Positions 9,201 through 53,523 of a stretch of 64,000 nt of DNA are shown piece after piece. Location: assembly GCF_018139145.2 (NCBI RefSeq), contig NC_059478.1, forward strand, positions 1,302,001 to 1,366,000. Reading direction: 5' to 3'. Made by a program: the position numbers and the translations under genes. Origin of the DNA: Gymnogyps californianus (Eukaryota > Chordata > Aves > Accipitriformes > Cathartidae). Within the stretch, counting starts at the first letter, position 1. Each line of letters begins with the position of its first letter. Below the pieces are notes generated by a model that was not told the origin of the DNA, did no database searches, and saw nothing but the letters and a program-made list of their open reading frames with translations.

Positions 9201-10415
9201 TGTCTAAGGCTGCCTCCATGATGAGCAGTGGATCTGTCCAGACCCACGCAATAAAAAATATCATGTGTTTGTGGAAAATCTCAGATTCCTCCTTTCCTGG
9301 CCCCTTTTCTTTTGATATGCCCTGTTAAGGAGGCTGGAGGAAAACTTCCCAGAGCCACTACAAGCAAACAAGAGGCATAAGTGCCATAATAACTGGACAT
9401 TATGGAGAGAAAGAGAAAAAGCCAGGGTTCCCTGTGGATGCTGTGTTTAATACCTACCCTGATCCAGGGCTTAGACACCCCTCTTCACAGTCTCTCTTGA
9501 AGAGAAATCTGAGGTGCAGTTGATGGTAAACTCATGTAAACAGAATTGATCACTTCTAAACTGTAAACTAGCATTAACCTCTTTCCCATATTCACAAAGG
9601 ACAGAGTTTAATGACACATTTTTACTTATCCTTTGCAACACTGAGATATTACTTCTTGGACCAGTGCTCAGTCTCTTTATAATATGTAGTTATGTCTTTT
9701 TATTTGTTACATTCATGGGGAGACTTCTAACCCAGGCAAAGGGATACCCCAGTTCAATTTCCCAGTTCAATTTTACTCCAAAGGTAATAAAATCCATCCA
9801 CAAGACCTGTAGGTACCAGCTTTCACATCTCTCCAGTAGACAGCCTTATCTGCTCTTATAGCAGAGGTGATCTTCATCCATCCTACTGAGTTGGTCAAGG
9901 ACCGAAAAGAAACCCAAACTCCACAACATTAAAAATTCATTTTATGAAAAAGAACACATGACTTGCCTGCACAGTTATGTGAAAAACTCTTGTTTCTTGC
10001 TGGTGAGTATGGGATCGCTTCCTTCCTCGAACACTAATTACATTAATGCAAAATATCAAGAGTCTTTGGAGCAGAAACTGAGTCATGATCTCCCTTGCCT
10101 CCCCTTTGTACTCAGAATTCCTGTACTTGTCTTCCTGGTTTTTTGTTGGCCCAGCTTCCTCTCAGGCATGTTTGGTAGGCAAAAGGAAAACTTATTTTTC
10201 TCTGTGTAACATTTTTTTTTCCATGAAAACGTGGCCTCAAAGACCACAATTCTGCTCCATGTCATATTATTGCAAATTGGCAGCACTCTGGTTAACCAAC
10301 ATGTTTGTTCTGACTTTATGCTGCAGCTTTCAAAAGCAGAATTCAGCAAAAGAATTCACTTTTTAAAAAGATAAATTTTTACTTAAATATTTCATTTTAA
10401 CCTATATTGGTCTTA

Positions 10416-10420
10416 CAAGT
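10416..10420. repeat. Left target-site duplication (CAAGT) of the solo LTR
   Basis: CAAGT lies immediately before the first base of the LTR and is repeated exactly after its last base (11006-11010). A 5-bp duplication is typical of ERVL-type and some class I avian retroviruses; ERVK-type elements usually give 6 bp. Confidence 0.85.
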
Positions 10421-11005
10421 TGTTGTGGTTTAACCCCAGCCAGCACCTAAGCACCATGCAGCCGCTCGCTCACTCCTCCCCGCTCCCAGTGGGATGGGGA
10501 GGAGTCGGAAATAAAAAAGTAAAACTCGTGGGTTGAGATAAGAATGGTTTAATAACTAAAAAAAAATAAAATATAATAAGAACAATAATAATAACGAAAT
10601 ACAATAAAAATAATAATTGTAATGAGAGAGAAATAAAACCCAAGAAAAGGCAAGTGATGCACAATACAATTTCTCACTACTCGCTGACCGATGCCCCAGC
10701 AGCGATCTGCCCCTCCTGGCCAACTCCCCCCAGTTTATATACTGGGCATGACGTTCCATGGTATGGAATACCCCTTTGGCTAGTTCAGGTCAGCTGCCCC
10801 GGCCATGCTCCCTCCCAGCTTCTTGCACCCCTGCTTGCTGGCAGAGCATGGGAAACTGAAAAATCCTTAACTTAGGATAAGCGCTACTTAGCAACAACTA
10901 AAACATCAGTGTGTTATCAACATCATTCTCACACTAAATCCAAAACACAGTGCTGTACCAGCTACTAAGAAGAAAATTAACACTATCCCAGCCGAAACCA
11001 GGACA
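10421..11005 (-). mobile_element. Solo LTR of an avian endogenous retrovirus, TGTCCTGGTTT family (ERVL-like)
   Basis: This 585-bp element reads TGTCCTGGTTTCGGCTGGG at its 5' end and GGGGTTAAACCACAACA at its 3' end on the minus strand, so it has the TG...CA termini of an LTR. It is bounded by perfect CAAGT duplications. In sense orientation it has a TATA box inside CCCAGTATATAAACTGGG (plus 10729-10746). An ATTAAA poly(A)-signal variant follows (plus 10548-10553), then a GC-richer U5 end. No gag, pol or env sequence flanks it, so it is a solo LTR left by recombination between two LTRs. Open frames inside it are not coding. The family name is from memory of bird LTRs; termini, TATA box and duplication are seen directly. 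Confidence 0.93.
10734..10741 (-). promoter_or_regulatory. LTR TATA box (TATATAAA, minus strand)
   Basis: TATATAAA lies within the 18-nt interrupted palindrome CCCAGTATATAAACTGGG, about 270 bp into the LTR in its own orientation. That fits the U3/R boundary of a retroviral promoter. Any remaining activity is unknown. Confidence 0.7.
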
Positions 11006-11010
11006 CAAGT
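11006..11010. repeat. Right target-site duplication (CAAGT) of the solo LTR
   Basis: Exact copy of the five bases that precede the LTR, confirming its boundaries. Confidence 0.85.
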
Positions 11011-22061: not shown

Positions 22062-22688
22062 TCACAGATTCACAGAATGGTTGATGTTGGAAGGGACCTC
22101 TGCAAGTCATCTGGTCTAACCACCCTGCTCAAGCAGGGCCACCCACATCCTGTTGCCCAGGATTGTGTCCAGATGGCTTTTGAATATCTCCAAGGACAGA
22201 GACTCCACAAGCTCTCTGGGCAAACTGTGCCAGTGCTCAGCCACCCTCACAGTAAAAAAGTGTTTCCTGATGTTCAGAGGGAACCTCCTGTGTTTCAGTT
22301 TGTGCCCTTTGCCTCTGGTCCTGGCACAGGGCACCACTGAAAAGAGCCTGGCTCCATCATCTTTAGAGCCTTCCTTCAGGTATTTATATACATTGATAAG
22401 ATCCCCCTGAGCCTTCTCTTCTCCAGACTGAACGGTCTCAGGTCTCTCAGCCTTTCCTTGTAGGAGACATACTCCAAACCCTTAATCATCTTTGTGGCCC
22501 TTTGTTGGACTCTCTCCAGTGTGTCCATGTCTCTCTTGTACTGGGGAGCCCTGAACTGGGCACTGCACTCCAGGTGTGGCTTCACCAGTGCTAAGTAGAG
22601 GGGAAGTATCCCCTTCCTCAACCTACTGGCAAAACTCCTCCTAATGCAGCCCAGGATACCATCAGCCTTCTTTGCACAAGGACACATA
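22062..22688 (-). mobile_element. CR1 LINE fragment, 3' part, minus strand
   Basis: This is a 5'-truncated copy of the avian non-LTR retrotransposon CR1. The plus strand begins with the reverse complement of the CR1 tail (TCACAGATTCACAGAATGG, then GGAAGGGACCTCTGCAAG). On the minus strand, 22376-22687 encodes a stretch with [28 protein letters not shown] and FSLEKRRLRG, the region just after the reverse transcriptase core of CR1 ORF2. The C-terminal part continues at 22116-22337 in a different frame (RFPLNIRKHFFTVRVAEHWH, SLPRELVES). The frame change and missing 5' half make it inactive. Retained similarity suggests moderate age. Confidence 0.95.
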
Positions 22689-35180: not shown

Positions 35181-35777
35181 AAGATACCTTTTCTTTTGGT
35201 ACAGCACAACAAAAACAGAATTTGTGATACTCGTAGGTTGGCAAAACAATGCGTGACCCCCATCTTGTCAGCACCGTGGCCATGGCAGAGTGCCCTCCGA
35301 GTGGCCACCTGTGTCCTTACCACCAGGAAACACCACCACATATACGCATAAATATATATACATATATAGGGGTGTACAAATAGGCCTTGGCTATTGAAGA
35401 ACAAATTGATTGTTTGGCTATGATTTTATACAAGATGTGAAAGGCCTACATGGAAAAGCATCACAATTTTAAAAGTCTGAAGTACTGACTGTGCTATGAG
35501 CAGATTTATAACATAAACCAGCAGCAGTGTTTGTAGCCTGTGATCAAAAATCAAGCAGCAGAGCAGGTTTATATTTTCTATGATATGGAGTGTTTTCAGA
35601 AAACTGGAACACATCTGAAGTCTATTTCTGCCTTGGAGTTAGCATTGGAAGCACCATGGGCTGAAAAAGCAGCAGTAGAAAAGAAAGCTGAAGGAGAATG
35701 CTTTGTTTAAATGGGACGCCTACCTCCTAAACTTTATTTGATTGTTTATGAACACAGTTTTGGGGCTACACATGCGT

Positions 35778-36148
35778 TGCCCTTAACAACAAAGGATATC
35801 ATGGTAGCACCTTGTCAGACAGCTTCTGAAAGAAAAAAAGGACAAGCAGTTAATCCCCCATGGTGGTAAACTCCTGGGTATACGCATTCCCAGCATAAGT
35901 ATACATTTCATAGACTCTACATTTTTTAATGATTAAACTCATTAAACTCAACAATCCTCCCCAGATTTTGGAATTAAAGGGCTGCAAAGGTTACTTCACC
36001 CATTTTTTCAACACTGCTGAAAATCAAATTCATGTGTAGGCCCTCTTCCATTACCAGAGTATTAGAGGGCTGGACAGCATGGTGCTTGAGCCAAAGAAAC
36101 AGTTCTTATCATGGCACTCAGCTAATCAGGAGAAGATTCTTTCTTTAC
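35778..36148 (+). pseudogene. Polymerase relic, N-terminal exonuclease-region block
   Basis: One frame runs from ALNNKGYHG (about 35779) through FLMIKLIKL, ELKGCKGYFTHFFNTAENQ and LDSMVLEPKKQFLSWH to KEICQ near 36148. In relatives this region reads as a HN.KGYD block, a DSL.FL.M.L..LP block, a LKKGYFPH.FN..ENQ block and a D.M....R..F..WH block, in that order and at similar spacing. Several stops interrupt the frame, including a TAG at 36037-36039 right after QIHV. It is the longest single-frame run of recognisable similarity in the relic. Confidence 0.8.
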
Positions 36149-36158
36149 AGAAAGAAAT

Positions 36159-36760
36159 ATGCCAATAAGATCATACAGGAATGAGATTATAGTAATGACC
36201 CATCACATACTGTATAAGAAAGGTGAAAATGTGAAGATGGATTGCTCTGCAGATCGCTTCCTGAATACTACATTGTTCTCTACACACATGGCCACATGCT
36301 GGTTTATGTACATCAAACTTCTCCCTTCTGGTGGCTGTCACCAGAGGAAAAAGAGACATTTGACCCACTCTATTCAATGGCTTACACATGTGACCAGAAA
36401 AGGAAAATATTCAAAGTTTTCATGCATTATACAGCAGTGGGAGCCTACTCCTTGGATGGCTGTGTGGTCATTGATAGAGCACTGACATCTTCTGAATGCA
36501 ATGGGTGCATTTTCTCTGGCTATATCAAATACTACCATGAAAATCACTGGAATCTTCTGACAGGGGCCACCTTTGCATATTTGTATTACGTGCCACAACA
36601 AAATATGGGCCACCTGAAAAGACCAGTCTTTAATTTCAGGTCGTATGGGAACATGAATGGGCCTTCATGGCAAGAGCTCTTATGCCAAAGTGCCCACACT
36701 GTTCATCCCCAGAGATGCTCTTTTTGGTGGCAGGAAAAATGCCATCTGTTTGTCTCATAA
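36159..36760 (+). pseudogene. Polymerase relic, central Cys-motif block (two overlapping frames)
   Basis: Frame 36159-36485 carries KLLPSGG followed by LTHSIQWLTHV, matching the family's IIP.GGY...S..A..WL block. Similarity then moves to the frame open from 36242 to 36760 (172 codons, the longest non-CR1 frame on the plus strand), with YSLDGCVV at 36446 and ECNGCIFSGYIKYY at 36494-36535, then LLTGATFAYLYY. Relatives carry a VDGY block and an EF.GC..HGC..CY motif here. In this copy the Phe, His and last two Cys of that motif are replaced (Cys, Ser, Tyr, Tyr), so a metal-binding role is lost. The 172-codon frame is open by chance, not a gene. Confidence 0.75.
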
Positions 36761-37796
36761 AGCAGCGCTTGACTAAAAGTTCCATTACTGTGATATTACG
36801 TGTTCTGTCCCTAGCAAAACAATACCTCCTTGGGCATGTAAAAGTAATTTTTGAGAATTTCAGCACTCTAGTAGCATATTTCAGGAAGATCAAAAGACAA
36901 ATATACCCACCTCGAGGGCTCTTTTTTCCCTATTTCTGGACAGACTAGCATCAAACTATTGTTTTCCTTGTGCCACTCTTCTGCTGAAACCTGCGAGGCC
37001 ATCTGCACCCTCAGGGATGAACAAAGAGCCCTTGTGAGCACCTGGTGCATCCCAGGTCTGAACTGGTCTCTGGGGGCGATACATGTGATACTCTGCCATC
37101 TGGCGTTTTGAACAGGGGGTTAACAACCTTTTTTAAGATTACATAAACCTCCTTTAAAAGCAAGAAGCTTCAGACTATCCAGTCTCTTGGATAAATGCTG
37201 ACAGATATCTAAAGATGTTAATTATTACAGGCAGAAGAAGACACTGCTTTCCGGCGTGAGTGCATAAAGAAAACCCCCACAAAATGCCAAACAATTTTGA
37301 AACGCTCTGTGGGTAAATATGGAAATATAAATTCAATCTTCCCAACACCACCATTGTAAGAGAACCAGATGAGTTGTAGTTTCCTCTTTTCTCTGGCTCA
37401 TGTCATGTTGAGGATGCTGCCACTGTCTCATGGAAGCATGCCAAAGGATGTGTAACCCTGGAATACAGCACTAACATTTTTATGGCACCACACCGTACAT
37501 GTGGCTAGAGCTTTACGATCTCTTTAGATGCAAGACCATTGCCTTTACCTAGACAGACTTTGATATTCATGAGTTGCCTGGGTGACTGCATGCTATTCCA
37601 CCTCTTTTCAGGTCAATGACACTAGATGAGCAAATTGCTGAGTTCATGTCTTCAGGTCCCAGATCCTATGGCTACCTGCAGTCAAGGGAAAAGTCTAGAA
37701 GCTAAAGACTTCACTCTAAATGCAACTAGCAGGGAAAAGATCAATTTTGTGTCATTAAGGGCACTTGTGTTGGACTATGACATAAATCCAGAGCAG
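36690..37796 (+). pseudogene. Polymerase relic, GGR block and palm motifs
   Basis: PRDALFGGRKNAICLSHKA (36708-36764) is the best-preserved block and matches the (R)DA.FGGRTNA block of Maverick polymerases. HYCDITCSVP follows in the same frame after one stop; motif A in relatives is D.TSLYP, so the Asp is kept but SLYP is lost. Then come PPRGLFFP, the ERAL.GTW-like block, DYINLL-stop-KQEASDYP, NALW near 37301 (motif B position) and EFMSSGPRSYGY. SLEAKDFTLN (37692) is in another frame from SGPRSYGY. The YxDTDS motif expected near 37550 is not intact in any one frame. Confidence 0.78.
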
Positions 37797-37965
37797 TGAT
37801 GCCTCTAAAATGATCATCATGGATCAGTATCCCATCAGTAGGAACCAGGAGGAGTGGGAGAAAGAATCCAGCCCCCACCCCAGACACAGAAGATGGTCTA
37901 TGGCAAATGGGTATTGGCTACAATTTTCTGCAGCTTTTGGACATGCACTGGAAGCACGTTTTTTC

Positions 37966-38314
37966 CACATTTCTCGTAGGGTCTAGCAAATGTGGAAAAT
38001 GTTAATTTGAAAAAAGTTTTTTGGAGAATGCCAAAGACTTGCTCTCTATTAAGCCTTGGAACGTGGTGTGGTGGTAGAGTAGTCAGCAACTGCTGTATCA
38101 GGGGCTGCTCTGTAAATATCCTTTTATGAAATTTGTGGAGGACTTATTAAAAAGTCTTAGCAATAACCCCTTATTTCCACCTCATAAAATGTACAGGATT
38201 GTGATCAATGATTTGATGAATTCTGCCGGTGAGAGAAATTGAAAAAACCCTAACTTTTACTAACTGAGTGCATCGCAGGAATCTTAGCATCCTGTACATT
38301 GTACAGAATACAGT

Positions 38315-38350
<36 letters not shown>

Positions 38351-41300
38351 TTGTTGTTTCTTTGTTGCCCAGGGCAAGAAGACCCATACCATTTACTCAG
38401 CATAAAATACATGGTATTAAGAAGACCCAAGATAAGTTCTAGGCTGTATCCTGTATCCCTAGTGAGACAGATGTATCCTGGCAATATGGAAATTTTCTTC
38501 AACTTAGTAGCCATGGGCTGTGCAAGAAACTCGGAAAGAAAGTGATTGTTTCCAGGGGCAAGAGAGAAAAAAAATAATTTGAGAGTGACCAGTGAGAGTG
38601 AGCAGCAAGGTGGAATAGGTTATATTTCAGAGGGTCAAGGTTTACATTTCACAAAGGCTATAGTTTATGTATGTTATGTCTCTGTAAATGTATCAAACAA
38701 TATAGATGAAAAAGGAATGAGAATAATAAAATTTGAGTATGACTAAACACAGTGCTCTCCTGACACTGTTCTTTGAGGGTTAAATAAAACTGGAGGTGTT
38801 CAGTACTTCATGCAATCCACTTGTTTGCAGGGATTTTATGCAGAGTTACTATACATAAGTGAAGAGGGACAGAGAAAAGGAATGTAATTTCTTTTCACTG
38901 ATATGCTTTAAAAACATTGGAAGAAAAAATTATCTCCTAAAGATCTCTATATCCTAAATTAGATATAGAAACATTATTTCATGTGGGCATAGAGATATCT
39001 CTGAAGAGAAGTGCTGGAAAGACTCAGATCTAAATGCCACCCATCTTTGGAGGTATGGGTGCTGGCTGACTCTCTCATTTCATTATTAGGCTCTGCATTG
39101 TTTATTTAGTTAAAGTGTGGTTCTACCATGTTCTTCTTTCTTCCATTAGACTTTTTTTGTGTCTTCCTCTGGCTACTATAGAATTTCACAGGAGATAATT
39201 CATTAGAATCTTCTTTTTCCACTGTGACAATAAATTAAGTGGACACCACTGAATATATTTTCTCTTTCGCTAATTCTGCAAATAAGTGGAACTTTTACAA
39301 AGCTGTAATTTTCCAGAATTTAGTTTTTGTCATATTGTCAATTTAAGACAACAGAAAAATAGTCGATGTTCACATAAATGTTTGCAGTATATCTAAATAG
39401 TCTGCCAAGGTTTGAATATAGTGTGTTATTTTCAGAGCATAGTTATATATATTCAAAGCATACTGTACAGTGACTGAAACAGTTGGTTTGGCTTTCCACA
39501 CTGATCCATGGTAAGCAGCTCTAAATTCTTCTGTTTTTTCTTGAATCACCATTTTTCTCAGCAATGATATCCACAATTTATTGTCCCTGTCAATTTTGAC
39601 TTTGCATATGAGCACAAAGGCCATTTTTGACAAGGAATGTTTTTTCACACTTACGTCAAACTCAAGAAAGAGGGATTTGGGTAGGAGGGCATCTTGCTCT
39701 ACATCTGCTTTGAGCGTTTGCCCTACATGTCCTTTGAGAATACTTTTCTTCAGCCAATTAATAAAAATAATTTCAAAAATGATTAGGCTATCATAAATCA
39801 TCTTCCTTTGTGTTTTGGTTTTTTTTTTTCTTTCCCACAGGTATCATGATCCTATGTGTCCACAGATTTTACCTAACCTTTTATGTCAGAATTTCAACAA
39901 TATCTGTATTTCATAAGCAGGTCACTCAACTTCCAAAAATAAGAAATGTCTATGAAAATTATAATGCTTCAGAACAGTAATATAATCATAAAATTTGACA
40001 GTATTTCTTTGTAAATCATTCAACAGAAGCTAAATCTTACTAAATTCTGTCCTCGTAGTTACTATTTCATTTACTTTGATATGAAAAGTGTTGTACATGT
40101 ACGGCACTTTCTTCTGAATAGTTTGACTGTAGTCAACAATGTCACTTACAGAGGCTGGAGCAAATAAACTTAGGTATGAGTGAAACTCGGCCTGAGCAAA
40201 GATCAGTTTCTAGGATGCAGTTATGTCCTCCTGGTCCATATGTAGATGTTTGCACTGAAGGAAGATGCTTTCCTTCAGTGCCTTGTCAAAACGCACATAC
40301 TCTCCTCATATTAGGGAATGTAAGTCCTGGGAGATATCCTTGGAAATGGGTATATGCATATCTCATATCTGCAGGGAAGCCAGGTGGAATTAATGCTGCC
40401 TGAGCTTTCATAACAATTTCTATAACACATGAAGACCATATTGTAATACTTCCATGCTATTAAAAGGCTACGGGATATGCTTCTGCACAGGTTATTGTGC
40501 GGTATGAATTTTGACATTTCTGCAAGATTATTGAAGAAAAGAAGAGGACTAGGAAGCTTTGGATTTGTAGTTATACTGCATGCTGGAAAGGTGATGCACG
40601 GGGACATGTCCAGTACTGCACATTAAATCATTCCTCATCACCCTGCAATGTACACATTACTTTCTCATAAAACATTGGTGCAGATAATGATGTGATCTTT
40701 TATTGTTGCTGTAATCCAAGTCCAATTTATAATATTCTTCATATCCTGTGGTAACTACATCACATGTGTGGAGAGTCAATTACAAGTACCTTTTTCTCTT
40801 TTATGCATATTTTAAAAACATAATTAATAATAAAATATACTCAGCAATTTTATAGCTCTATTACTTCCCATTAAAAATAACAGGCTGCAACAGTATAAAA
40901 GGTGACCTATTCCCTGTGACAGTCAGACCCAATGGCACCATTGACTAGAACCATCTGGAAATGTTCTGCCAAAGCAAATACCACATTTTTAAAGTCTGTG
41001 CTACCAATTTGATGCATGGCTTCCCAAAGACAGTAAAAACTGACAGCTAAGCCTAGGATTCTACAGTCCACAGATGTGAGGAGTCCCTAATTATGTGTCA
41101 GTCCAGTGTCAGCGCTCAGGTTTCAGTAGCTTCACCTCAACAGAGGGAATCCAGCTCCCACAGTTCTGATATCATTATGAATTTGCAGTACTGGTGTTAC
41201 TATGAGACCCACCACAGAGCAAAATCTATGGAATTCAATACTATTATAAAATAAGATGTGTACATCTTACCTGTAAGCTAGGTGAATATACATGAGAGAG

Positions 41301-41849: not shown

Positions 41850-41960
41850 GAATCACAGAATCACAGAATCATATAATGGTTGAGGTTGGAAGGGACCTAC
41901 GGAGTTCATCTGGTCCAATCCCCCTGCTCAAGCAGGGTCATTTAGAGACAGTTGCTCAGG
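41850..41960 (-). mobile_element. CR1 LINE 3' terminal fragment, minus strand
   Basis: AATCACAGAATCACAGAATC is the reverse complement of the octamer-repeat tail of CR1. It is followed by GGTTGGAAGGGACC-like sequence and CCCCTGCTCAAGCAGGGTCA, the hairpin-forming part of the CR1 3' UTR. Only about 111 bp is present, a severely 5'-truncated insertion. Confidence 0.95.
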
Positions 41961-42978
41961 AAATTTTTATGAATAAATAAAAATTCCAAAAAATGTGAGA
42001 AATTGATTTTCTACCCATTACCTTTTAAGTGTTTTTTGGCAAATTAATTAAAAGTTTGTTTAAATTTGCAATGATAATATGACAAAATAGATTAACTGAT
42101 TAGGGTGAGATTTACTTTCACGCTTGACTTCCCAACCATCCCTGTGATCTCAGGGTACGTGTTAAGCTTTTGTGATCTCAAAATGCATTTTGATCTGGAA
42201 AACCTAAAGAGGAGACCAGACCTGAATACCTATGTTGTCTTAAATTGAATCCTGAAGAAAAATCTGGAATAAGAGCTTTGATATTACTGCTACGAGCATC
42301 CCTTTTCCTCTATCCCCTTTCTTTTTCTTTGTTTAAAAATATACCACCTAACGACTGAAAAATATACCAAAACCCCAGACAAGTTGGATAAAGTGAGCAA
42401 GGCCTTTCTTTTTGCAATATTGCTCGTGGACCTAAGACCAGAAATGCAATTAAAATCAATATCTTGCCTAGTAGATGATAAAGCACTTGCACAAGTGTGT
42501 CTTTCTCCAGAGGCAAGATTGCAAGTAACAAGAATGCCAGAAAAAGAAGCTGCATGTTCCATCTTCACTTCTGTTTTCTCTACATTAATTTTGCTTTGTC
42601 TTCAAAATATCAGGATCTGACCTGAATTGCTGAGACCCATAGAAACATCTCAAGTTAATTTCTGCTCTTCAAAGGGACAGTATTTACCATGTTTACAATC
42701 TTAGTAAAGATATCCAGACTTCTTTATTTGTTTTACATCATATAAAAACTTTTAATCTAAAAGTAAGAAAAATAAGTATATTACTAGAAAGCTTCAATAT
42801 CTTCCAATTCAAATACCTCAACTTCCCCCTCTCTCCCCCTTAATATTTTTAAATAGTTAAAAATTGTTTTAATTATTAATTATTAAATATTTTGCTATGA
42901 CACAAAATATACCATAATCTCTTCCTGTTTTATTGTTTATGGGAGATTTTGATACCAACAAAATAAACACTGATAATG

Positions 42979-47674: not shown

Positions 47675-48694
47675 CATTTGTCCAGATGGAGATCAGTAAC
47701 AAGTGATGTCCCTCAGGGGTCCATATTGGGACCAGTACTGTTTAATATCTTCATCACTGACATAGACAGGGGACCGAGTGCACCCTCAGCAAGTTTGCAG
47801 ATGACACGAAGCTGAGTGGTGCAGTTGACGCACCTGAGGGACAGGATGCCATCTAGAGGGACCTGGACAAGCTCAAGAAGTGGACCCATGTGAACCTCAT
47901 GAGGTTCAACAAGGCCAAGTGCAAGCTCCTGCACCTGGGTTGCAGTAGCCCCTGGTATCAATACAGGATGGGGGATGGATGGATTGAGAGCAGCCCTGCA
48001 GAGGAGGACTTGGGGGTACTGGTGGGTGGTAAATTGGACATGAGCCATCACTGTGCACTCGCAGCCCAGAACACCAACCGTATCTTGGGCTGCATCAAAA
48101 GAAGCGTGGCCAGCAGGTTGAGGGAGGGGATTCTGCCCCTCTACTCCACTTTGGTGAGACCCCACCTGGAGTCCTGCATCCAGCTCTGGAGTCCTCAGCA
48201 CAGGAAAGACATGGAGCTGTTGGAGCGGGTCCAGAGGAGGGCCACAAAAATGGTCAGAGGGATGGAACACCTCTCCTACGAGGAAAGGCTGAGAGAGTTG
48301 GGGTTGTTCAGCCTGGAGAAGAGAAGGCTCTGGGGAGACCTTATTGCGGCCTTTCAATACTTAAAGGGGGCTTATAAGAAAGATGGGGACAGACTTTTTA
48401 GTAGGGCCTGTTGCGATAGGACAAGGGGTAATGGTTTTACATTAAAAGAGGGTAGATTCAGACTAGATATAAGGAAGAAATTTTTTATAATGAGGGTGGT
48501 GAAACACTGGCACAGGTTGCCCAGAGAGGTGGTAGATGCCCCATCCCTGGAAACATTGAAGGCCAGGTTGGACGGGGCTCTGGGCAACCTGATCTAGTTG
48601 AAGATGTCCCTGCTCATTGCAGGGGGATTGGACTAGATGACCTTTAAAGGTTCCTTCCAACTCAACCTATTCTACGATTCTATGATTCTATGAT
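47675..48694 (+). mobile_element. CR1 LINE copy, 3' ~1 kb, plus strand
   Basis: This 5'-truncated CR1 retrotransposon begins inside the reverse transcriptase and ends in [40 protein letters not shown] (47709 on) and FADDTKL (about 47797) are the reverse transcriptase motifs around the catalytic ADD. They are in different frames, so a frameshift lies near 47775. A TAG interrupts the second frame near 47854. From 47890 the frame is open for 235 codons to a stop ending at 48597, covering the C-terminal region (FNKAKCKLLHLG, LGCIKRSVASRL, LERVQRRATKMVRGMEHLSY, FRLDIRKKFF, HWHRLPREVVDAPSLETLK). It is inactive because its 5' half is missing, but it is less decayed than the 22-kb copy. Confidence 0.96.
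47890..48597 (+). pseudogene. CR1 ORF2 C-terminal fragment (235 codons open)
   Basis: This is the open part of the CR1 ORF2 described with the element. In an intact CR1, ORF2 encodes an endonuclease plus reverse transcriptase that copies its own RNA at the target site. Only the thumb and C-terminal region survive here, without the endonuclease or full catalytic palm. The first Met is simply the first ATG after an upstream stop, not a real start. The frame ends shortly before the 3' UTR, as in the family. Confidence 0.9.
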
Positions 48695-51579
48695 TTCTGT
48701 TCTCAGAAATCTGTTTCTCTCTGTCAGGTCATGTAACACTAAATGGCAGTCTGTTTATCTTTAATTAACAAATTATTTCCTTCATCTTTGAACTCTATAA
48801 CATGCAGATCAAAAGATTAATTCTTATTGAGGTCCATATTGTATACAATGGCATATAAAATGGTGGCTGTCATGACAGTCTCAAGTATTCTTTAAAATCC
48901 ATTAATATAATACGATTATTGATGCCTCCTGGAGACAGTGGGTTTCACAGATAAATTATATACTATAAAAAATCACCCTTTCTAAAACTATTGTCAATTA
49001 ATTTTGCTATGTTTAAATTTCTTATCACATTTCTTAGAGTGGAAAAAAAGGTGATGACATTTTTGGTAGGCATGGCATAATTTTGAACACAAATGAGGAT
49101 AAGTAATTTTGTCCTTCCTAATTTCTCATCTTACACTGTTGTCATCTTACAGTAATTGTAAATGCTGTTTTGATATTTTTTTAATGTTTTTTTATCCTTC
49201 CCATCAATTTAATTCCTCATTTCCTTTTTCTCTTATTGTTATTACATATTGCCATGGAATCCCCCCAATCTTAATATTCAATTTTTTATATGTGTTCCTG
49301 AAGACTGAAACTTTCCTTATAATTTATCATACCGAATTTATACAAAGAAAATATGCCACATAGACTGGTAATAGTTAATAGGATAGAAAACAATTAAACT
49401 GGTATGCAGCTGCTTATACTAGAACAGCTCATGTCCCCACTGGAAAAAGGATGAACTAAAACCCCTGTGAGATTATTACACAGTTATGGCTCTGAACATG
49501 CCAAGAGTTATACTGGAAGGTCTATTGCAATAAACACCTGCCCCTCAAACCAAATGGAATCAGACTGGAATAAATATTTTCCCATAGGCAGCTCAAACTG
49601 TCTTGGCGGTGCAAAATTCATTCCTGACAAAAGAAGGGAAGTAATAGAAAGACTGAAGTCAGTCATAGCAATAGTCAGTGTGGCTTAAGGGAAATAACAG
49701 AGCTGGAGTGCTACAAAATACAATGGGACTATCCCTTCTCCATGATTTCATCCTTTTCTCTCTCTCCTGTTAAGTATTCAGCATAGAGGAAACCAACCAA
49801 GGAACCATCCTTTCTTTAGTCCCTATACACCATCACTCATCATTCCACACGGAAATATCTAAGTATTTCATGTAGCCCAGCTCTTTGTACTGCTGGCATC
49901 TTCTGCCTCTGCATCCAACACCTCCTGTGGAGGTGGATGGGTCCAGAAACAGAGGTGGATTACACTTACTAGAGGACTCTCAGAAGGAAAGGAGGGGCTT
50001 CGAGGACTGGAGGTTGTGTAGGGTGGAAGTGAAAGAGGGGAAGGGTAACTGTATCCTATCGGGGAACAGCAGCTGCTGTCCCCAGATATTGTTGTCCCTC
50101 CCATGGCAGCAGACAAATTTGTGCTAGAAGAGTTGATCTTCAGCTTCCTCCATGGGATGTGCAACAGATATGCTGCTGAATTCACTTTTGCTTACTACCT
50201 TGAGACAGCTGTGTAACCTCCATATAGAGGCAATACCAGAGAGCTGGGTTTTGAATCTCCACTGCACTGAACATTGCACAGCCACTTGTATCAGTGCTAA
50301 GCAAGTGTAAAAATGTTGTAAATCAGAAGAGTATTAATACCTGGAATTCACAGTAAGAATACCTATTCCTATACCCCAGGTGCAAAAATCAAGCAAAAAA
50401 CCATCATGCCCCTGAAAATTACGAATCCCTGACTACGGAGAAATGAAAAAAACATCCGTGAGATGAGCTAACCCCCCTCCTGCTCACTCCCACAATTTTT
50501 GATAAATGTGAAATGGATTATAACTGGACAAGGTATCCTATTGAAGAAAACTGATGAATATTTATTATATATAGAACTGGCTCCATGTTGAGTTTCACTA
50601 GCAATTGCTATCACCATGCTCAAAATCTATTAATGACATCAGTACTTTGTACTACTATCCCTCTCATTTCAGCAGCAAAATATGCTTGCCGAAGTGTTCA
50701 TTTCACATTTTTTCAATTCTATGCAATATAGTTTCACACTTCTTTCATTCACTGTGCTACACGAGATTTTACACTATGATGAGTGACCCTTGCTACCTTT
50801 TTCAAGAAACAGTCCTGAGCCGCGAAATCTTGATCTGGCTTTGACAGTAATTTCAAGGCATTTCTGGCATTCAATCATCCATAATTGCCATGTCACAAGT
50901 CACACATCACATAGAATAAATAACAGTCTTAGCTACATACCCTTAAACCAACCAGGTCTAAAAAAATTAAATAAAACTACTCTATTATTGTATGATAACT
51001 TAAAAGAAAAAAAGTTCTTTTATTCATAAGAAAACCTATTGGAATTAATGTTTTGAAAATTCTGACCTTTCAAAGATAGCATGATTGTTTTCTTAACCTG
51101 CTAAACTCAGAAATGTCCCAGAAAAGGCTCCTCCATTACGCTTTGTACCTATTTCCCCTGTGAGTTGGAAACAAACAGGGTAGCAATGGGGGAAACAGAT
51201 TCACAATTTGGATTTGAAAGACAAGTAGTTACTTACATTAAAATAGTTTTCCCTTGTATTAGGCCAGATCTTATACCAATTAACATCATAGGAAAAACTC
51301 CCTTAAACCTTCTGCTTAAAAGGATTTTTTAAAAGCTGGGTTTTTGTAAATCAATGGTTATCTTTGTTTTATTTTAAAGAAAAACATGGTATTAATGTTT
51401 GAATCTTTAGCCTCATTATAACTAGCATACTTGAAAGGACACACAAATTCCCAAAAGTATAAATAGGACACCTATTTTATTATTCATTCAGCAACATCTG
51501 CATTTTAATAGCTATGCCAGTGAAGCATCATTATCAAAAACAGGTAAAAGAACAAACATTGTCTCCCTGACAAAATACA

Positions 51580-53419: not shown

Positions 53420-53424
53420 AGCTG
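53420..53424. repeat. Left target-site duplication (AGCTG) of the 94-bp LTR
   Basis: AGCTG directly precedes TGTCCTGG and is repeated exactly at 53519-53523. Confidence 0.85.
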
Positions 53425-53518
53425 TGTCCTGGTTTCAGCTGGGACAGAGTTAACTGGGAGGGGGGAGGGGGAAGCGGCTGCCTGGTGCTTAGTTGCTGAC
53501 TGGGGTTAAACCACAACA
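53425..53518 (+). mobile_element. Internally deleted 94-bp solo LTR, TGTCCTGGTTT family
   Basis: Both LTR ends are intact: TGTCCTGGTTTCAGCTGGG at the left and GGGGTTAAACCACAACA at the right, the same termini as the 585-bp LTR at 10.4 kb but in the opposite orientation. About 490 bp of the middle is absent, including TATA box and poly(A) signal. The join lies near GAGTTAACTGGGAGG. A perfect 5-bp duplication (AGCTG) flanks it, so it arose from a genuine integration and later, or before insertion, lost its interior. Confidence 0.92.
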
Positions 53519-53523
53519 AGCTG
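53519..53523. repeat. Right target-site duplication (AGCTG) of the 94-bp LTR
   Basis: Exact match to the five bases before the LTR, fixing both ends. Confidence 0.85.

What the first reader, a model, noticed from the sequence alone, without database searches (positions are those of the whole stretch)
35182..37965. Endogenous Maverick/Polinton- or adintovirus-like DNA polymerase relic in a bird genome
At least ten short blocks typical of protein-primed family-B polymerases of Maverick/Polinton elements occur in the correct order on one strand over 2.8 kb, in all three frames. Chance could give one such block but not an ordered series including ELKGCKGYFTHFFN, PRDALFGGRKNA, KQEASDYP and EFMSSGPRSYGY. 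Such elements are large virus-like transposons; intact copies appear rare in birds, so a dated avian fossil would inform on when this lineage entered the germline. The sequence shows the blocks; family identity comes from remembered motifs; the viral origin is inference.
Basis: partly seen in the sequence, partly recalled or inferred. Interest (0 to 1): 0.88.

Follow-up and report, generated by a model that had tools for sequence, protein, structure and literature searches.

The report
Decayed Maverick DNA-polymerase fossil in bird
The window holds a heavily decayed copy of the DNA-polymerase gene of a Maverick (Polinton), a virus-like mobile element that once spread in this bird-like genome; such fossils are already known in birds, but this one has many relatives in the same genome, some with recognisable element ends.

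Summary
Window 35382-38484 (+) aligns as DNA (64-81% per piece) with 14 of 15 other places of the same genome listed for Pfam DNA_pol_B_2. Four open pieces of those copies match Pfam (best 1.8e-19) and, at E<=1e-3, hit the 64-kb window only at 35755-37369, + strand. The window's own pieces are too decayed for Pfam; the naming goes through the siblings. Siblings carry inverted repeats around the polymerase, and some have AGTAGT ends and 6-bp target duplications, the printed vertebrate Maverick signature. The window keeps only polymerase and a faint left-repeat remnant, has the longest branch of the copies compared, and is broken by many frame-breaking gaps. Avian Mavericks, including polymerase relics in chicken and turkey, are in print: a new member of a known kind. 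Side finding: a 463-bp repeat-to-repeat element with perfect target duplication and 97% identical arms hints at later mobility. Orthology and dating could not be tested.

The parts
35382..38484 (+). relic of a Maverick/Polinton protein-primed family-B DNA polymerase gene, broken in all frames
   Evidence: blastn to 14 of 15 sibling places of the same genome; tblastn of four Pfam-positive open pieces
35286..35381 (+). faint remnant of the left terminal inverted repeat, abutting the polymerase
   Evidence: weak match to repeats of sibling copies; 0 of 500 random sequences reach its best or summed score; of 281 other window blocks 1 reaches the best and 0 the summed score; the C406 repeat shows no match here with the low-complexity filter on, the C263a repeat does at E 0.001
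35576..35599 (+). block FYDMECFQ, N-terminal part
   Evidence: matched at the same place in sibling copies
35971..36012 (+). block ELKGCKGYFTHFFN
   Evidence: matched in sibling copies L051, L054, L055, L064, L050
36530..36565 (+). block YYHENHWNLLTG
   Evidence: matched in sibling copies
36640..36660 (+). block VVWEHEW
   Evidence: matched in sibling copies
36708..36743 (+). block PRDALFGGRKNA
   Evidence: matched in sibling copies
37158..37181 (+). block KQEASDYP
   Evidence: KQEASGYP or KQEASGCP at the same place in five of the six best matches listed
37312..37335 (+). block GKYGNINS
   Evidence: weak matches in sibling copies
37640..37675 (+). block EFMSSGPRSYGY
   Evidence: matched in L066 and L050

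Best explanation
The stretch is a dead genomic fossil. Long ago a Maverick (Polinton) element, a virus-like DNA element that copies itself with its own protein-primed polymerase and inserts with its own integrase, landed at this place in the germ line of an ancestor of this bird-like animal. The window copy then lost everything that could be recognised except the polymerase gene and a trace of its left end, and decayed by substitutions and frame-breaking insertions and deletions. Related copies of the same family elsewhere in the genome are better preserved and probably younger. Shown: polymerase homology, copy family, ends and target duplications in some siblings, decay. Inferred: insertion by the element's own integrase, relative and absolute age, the bird host, the absence of any present function.
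For: Pfam DNA_pol_B_2 in open pieces of four siblings, E 1.8e-19, 2e-12, 3.6e-12, 2.7e-12 (4 of the 6 pieces given). DNA homology of window 35382-38484 to 14 of 15 places, for example 2317 columns at 68.5% with C406. All 8 translated matches at E<=1e-3 fall in the relic. Inverted-repeat pattern: the same segment lies upstream in the same orientation in 11 of 13 copies and downstream inverted in 6 of 13. AGTAGT ends and target duplications as printed for vertebrate Mavericks. Decay: 43 gaps, 32 not a multiple of three, in the main alignment to C406; identity 77.6, 75.8 and 73.3% at codon positions 1, 2 and 3, close to even. Longest terminal branch of the two trees, 0.28-0.34 against 0.00-0.20 for the 9 and 8 siblings compared.
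Against: No window piece of the ten given reaches a polymerase family by itself, nor does the genome-wide Pfam search list the window. No other element gene was found in the window with the pieces I had, and no right repeat. No reference Maverick protein was available: the homology database was off and viral contigs gave nothing I could take for one.
Confidence: 0.94

Rival explanations
1. The window relic is a piece of an element that was already reduced to polymerase plus terminal repeats when it inserted: deletion derivatives, moved in trans by intact elements, spread through this genome.
For: C511:42229-46615 is 4387 bases with AGTAGT/ACTACT ends and a flanking duplication matching at 5 of 6 bases; the downstream gene of the C30 copies was not found there (other genes were not looked for). 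C3 has the right repeat about 125 bases after its polymerase match ends. A 463-base repeat-to-repeat element with perfect 6-base duplication lies in the same contig as the C511 copy.
Against: Three copies on C30 clearly, and a fourth in part, keep a downstream gene on the opposite strand, so the family was not polymerase-only as a whole; deletion after insertion would leave the same picture at C511. The window itself keeps no right repeat.
Confidence: 0.2
2. The polymerase comes from another protein-primed system (adenovirus, linear plasmid, other virus) and not from a Maverick.
For: DNA_pol_B_2 is a broad family; phrog_1907 'DNA polymerase' of phages also matches the C406 piece at 2.3e-10.
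Against: Inverted repeats with AGTAGT ends and 6-base target duplications around the polymerase are the Maverick signature in print.
Confidence: 0.03
3. The relic has been taken over by the host, for example as a regulatory sequence.
For: Ancient Polinton fossils with conserved, possibly regulatory sequence are reported in human (PMC9004415, passages).
Against: The window copy has the longest branch of the copies compared and its codon positions differ almost evenly from C406; no conservation data were available.
Confidence: 0.03

Closest known systems
Defective avian Mavericks of Barreat and Katzourakis 2021 (PMC8097293; passages and one section seen)
   Same: Decayed Maverick copies in birds; AGT-repeat ends and 6-base target duplications in the family
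   Different: This host and locus are not named, so I cannot say whether it is among their loci; here 14 further polymerase places were seen in one genome, of which C36, C406 and C30 75.06 Mb may be duplicates of one another
Polinton remnants of chicken and turkey, chromosomes 2 and Z (PMC4992247; passage seen)
   Same: Interrupted polymerase B frames, the best preserved on Z; here 4 of 14 siblings lie on C30, which may be Z
   Different: The window copy lies on C8 (37 Mb); orthology untested
Human/placental Maverick integrations (PMC9683012) and Paleozoic Polinton fossils (PMC9004415); passages seen
   Same: Very old, decayed Maverick pieces in vertebrate genomes
   Different: Other hosts and loci; there dated by orthology, here not dated

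Membership tests
Vertebrate Maverick/Polinton | protein-primed family-B DNA polymerase (pPolB) | tested here: met
   siblings by Pfam DNA_pol_B_2; window by DNA and translated homology to them, not by Pfam directly
Vertebrate Maverick/Polinton | terminal inverted repeats (46-1447 bases in print) | tested here: met
   in siblings: same segment upstream in 11 of 13 and inverted downstream in 6 of 13; in the window only a faint left remnant
Vertebrate Maverick/Polinton | end motif (AGT)2 // (ACT)2 | tested here: met
   in siblings: exact at 5 of 16 ends inspected, one mismatch at 2, not seen at 9; window: ends not found
Vertebrate Maverick/Polinton | 6-base target site duplication | tested here: met
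   two C511 elements: 6 of 6 and 5 of 6 bases; window: not testable, ends not found
Vertebrate Maverick/Polinton | second gene module on the opposite strand (integrase, capsids, protease) | tested here: inconclusive
   opposite-strand gene downstream of polymerase in three C30 copies and part of it in a fourth; no family model reached its cut-off (10 pieces Pfam, 4 pieces PHROGs, 3 pieces NCBIfam); capsid label recalled; not found in the window
Vertebrate Maverick/Polinton | retroviral-type integrase of the element | tested here: inconclusive
   integrase pieces near C406 sit among LTR repeats and were not tied to the element
Adintovirus | virion-forming relative, separated from Mavericks by phylogeny | not testable with these tools
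   no reference proteins could be obtained

The most novel reading that the evidence does not exclude
Maverick-type integration continued in this bird lineage until geologically recent times: short deletion derivatives such as the 463-base element at C511:38542-39004 (repeat arms 119 of 123 identical, perfect 6-base duplication; [quoted passage not shown]
Probability: 0.12. Interest if true: 0.7.

Novelty: new member of a known kind. Interest (0 to 1): 0.38.

Why it matters
A decayed copy at a fixed place on a large contig, with the longest branch of a family seen at 15 places of one genome, is a locus that can be dated by orthology across birds and so help settle when Mavericks died out in birds. 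Sibling copies with ends and target duplications may show how the elements shrank, and whether short derivatives moved late.

Tried and rejected
Reference polymerases: five degenerate DNA patterns made from window blocks, with alternatives allowed at some positions, gave 21, 0, 24, 0 and 2 stretches in viral contigs; one more, with one recalled residue, gave 1. Looking at all 48 matched stretches by eye I saw none that I took for a Maverick polymerase. The search for related loci with a sibling piece: 4 stretches, none confirmed. Tblastn of two window pieces against phages: no match. Solved structures: no match for two of three window pieces and one at E 0.47 for the third; one at E 0.24 for a polymerase piece and one at E 1.5 for a downstream-gene piece, none of them a polymerase or capsid.

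'U', a 1.16-kb repeat next to several copies, looked like an element end but starts TG, ends CA and occurs many times in the fetched loci: treated as a retroviral LTR and dropped. I first took the family for polymerase-only; the opposite-strand gene in C30 copies corrected that. Integrase, reverse-transcriptase, kringle and kinase pieces near C406 were attributed to retroelements and a host gene, not to the element.

A genome-wide copy count by DNA, a test of C30 as Z (DM-domain genes), an adenain-type protease search and a count of the 463-base element could not be made: the genome search answered once and was busy.

Full report
1. The observation. Ten single window pieces scanned against Pfam gave no polymerase hit even at E 10, so the window alone is too decayed to be named by a profile. 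KQEASGWP, close to one of the blocks, also occurs in 24 of 24 viral contigs that matched a pattern made from it, in an open frame of another kind, so single blocks are not proof.

2. Siblings in the same genome. The window is G000:C8:1302001-1366000 of a 1.24-Gb genome in 542 contigs. A search of that genome with Pfam DNA_pol_B_2 listed 24 rows at E<=10, at 15 places by my grouping, 11 of them with a row over the family's cut-off; the window's place is not among them. At DNA level the window's 35382-38484 aligns with 14 of these 15 places; the one without such a match is C30:43555461 (L068), whose only matches in the window lie in repeats. Examples: C406, 2317 columns at 68.5%; C3, 2506 columns at 64.7%; C30 near 73.44 Mb, up to window 38318, with a further piece to 38484. 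Of six open pieces from siblings given to Pfam, four match DNA_pol_B_2 at 1.8e-19, 2e-12, 3.6e-12 and 2.7e-12; two do not. The relic is therefore a real polymerase fossil and reaches 38484.

3. State of the relic. In the main alignment with C406 there are 43 gaps, 32 of them not a multiple of three; over 2087 compared bases the K2P distance is 0.295, and identity by codon position of C406's open frame is 77.6, 75.8 and 73.3%. In two MAFFT/FastTree comparisons of 10 and 9 sequences the window is 68-75% identical to every other copy, the others are 73-100% identical to each other, and the window has the longest terminal branch, 0.28-0.34. The trees are unrooted and many nodes are weak, so 'oldest' is an inference. 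With a recalled avian neutral rate near 2e-9 per site and year these numbers point to something like 70-150 million years for the window copy; this is a guess with wide error, not a date.

4. What kind of element. A 1.5-kb segment upstream of the C406 polymerase occurs upstream in the same orientation in 11 of 13 copies (C406 itself counted; the two without it, C97 and C263b, had only short flanks) and downstream in inverted orientation in 6 of 13; the 14th place, C166, was not in this comparison. I set aside a 125-base stretch at its edge that is a dispersed LTR end and matches in many places and both orientations, and one short inverted match within C36. This is the pattern of terminal inverted repeats around the polymerase. 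Outer ends: of 16 ends inspected, 5 show exactly AGTAGT (C36, C30c, three in C511), 2 have one mismatch (C163, one in C511), and at 9 no motif is seen where the alignment stops. At C511:42229-46615 the element is 4387 bases long, begins AGTAGT and ends ACTACT, its repeats align over 354 columns at 74%, and it is flanked by TCTGTT and GCTGTT, 5 of 6 bases alike. At C511:38542-39004 a 463-base element runs from AGTAGT to AGTACT between perfect GTCCCC duplications, with arms 119 of 123 identical. Inverted repeats, (AGT)2 // (ACT)2 ends and 6-base duplications are printed features of vertebrate Mavericks (PMC8097293, section 7 read, passages).

5. Other genes. Three copies on C30 clearly, and the fourth there (56.05 Mb) in part, carry downstream of the polymerase a shared stretch whose frames on the opposite strand are alike between copies. 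No family model reached its cut-off (10 pieces against Pfam; 4 against PHROGs; 3 against NCBIfam). I recall its character as that of a Maverick capsid protein followed by a small virion-core-like protein; this rests on memory alone. An opposite-strand second module fits the printed architecture. None of 13 pieces of this stretch finds anything convincing in the window (best E 0.38). The window shows no right-hand repeat with the repeats tried. On its left, 35286-35381 resembles the repeat of siblings: no random sequence of 500 reaches its best or summed score, and of 281 other 200-base blocks of the window, known repeats left out, one reaches the best and none the summed score; with the low-complexity filter on the C406 repeat shows no match there, though the C263a repeat does at E 0.001. 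I call it a faint remnant.

6. Where the siblings lie. Of the 14 matching places 4 are on C30 (85 Mb), 8 on scaffolds under 2 Mb, and one each on C1 and C3. Some are not independent: the C36 copy and the C30 75.06-Mb copy are about 100% identical where compared, and C406 97-98%. C30 is out of size order among the numbered large contigs (C4 85.5, C5 72.3, C8 37.1 Mb), which makes it a candidate Z chromosome; kringle and tyrosine-kinase frames near the C406 copy remind me of a receptor gene that I recall as Z-linked in chicken. Both points are inference; the planned test could not be run. Chicken and turkey polymerase relics on chromosomes 2 and Z, best preserved on Z, are in print (PMC4992247, passage).

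7. Novelty. [quoted passage not shown] Placental and Paleozoic fossils are known too (PMC9683012 and PMC9004415, passages). One search on Maverick, non-autonomous, terminal inverted repeats and bird listed 10 of 14 papers, none of whose titles is about short Mavericks in birds; I opened none of them for it. The finding is a new member of a known kind. Its more unusual part lies outside the window: the 463-base element with nearly identical arms, which could mean late mobility, or arm homogenisation by gene conversion.

Noticed in passing
window 10414-11009 and 53423-53520: Copies of one dispersed LTR-like repeat (I3 reads TTGTTGTGGTTTAACCCC...), very frequent in the fetched sibling loci; I recall it as an avian endogenous-retrovirus LTR.
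   Followed up: partly
window 22062-22687, 41851-41961, 47696-48703: Pieces of a LINE-like repeat with a 246-aa open frame (47857-48597 +) that I recall as CR1; the same repeat is common in the sibling loci.
   Followed up: partly
L087:6443-6905 (C511:38542-39004): 463-base element of two Maverick-type repeats with perfect 6-base target duplication and 119 of 123 identical arm bases; its middle reminds me of an LTR piece (recall).
   Followed up: partly
C36 about 121700-139600 and C406 about 223300-242900: The two scaffolds share long collinear stretches, most at 93-96% identity, around the polymerase copy, so one may be a duplicate or sex-chromosome counterpart of the other.
   Followed up: no
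L062, L063: The C36 and C30 75.06-Mb polymerase copies are about 100% identical in the compared stretch, which may be an assembly haplotig rather than two insertions.
   Followed up: no
L022-L045: KQEASGWP occurs in a conserved open frame of 24 viral contigs (I recall family-A phage polymerase), a caution for motif-only calls.
   Followed up: partly
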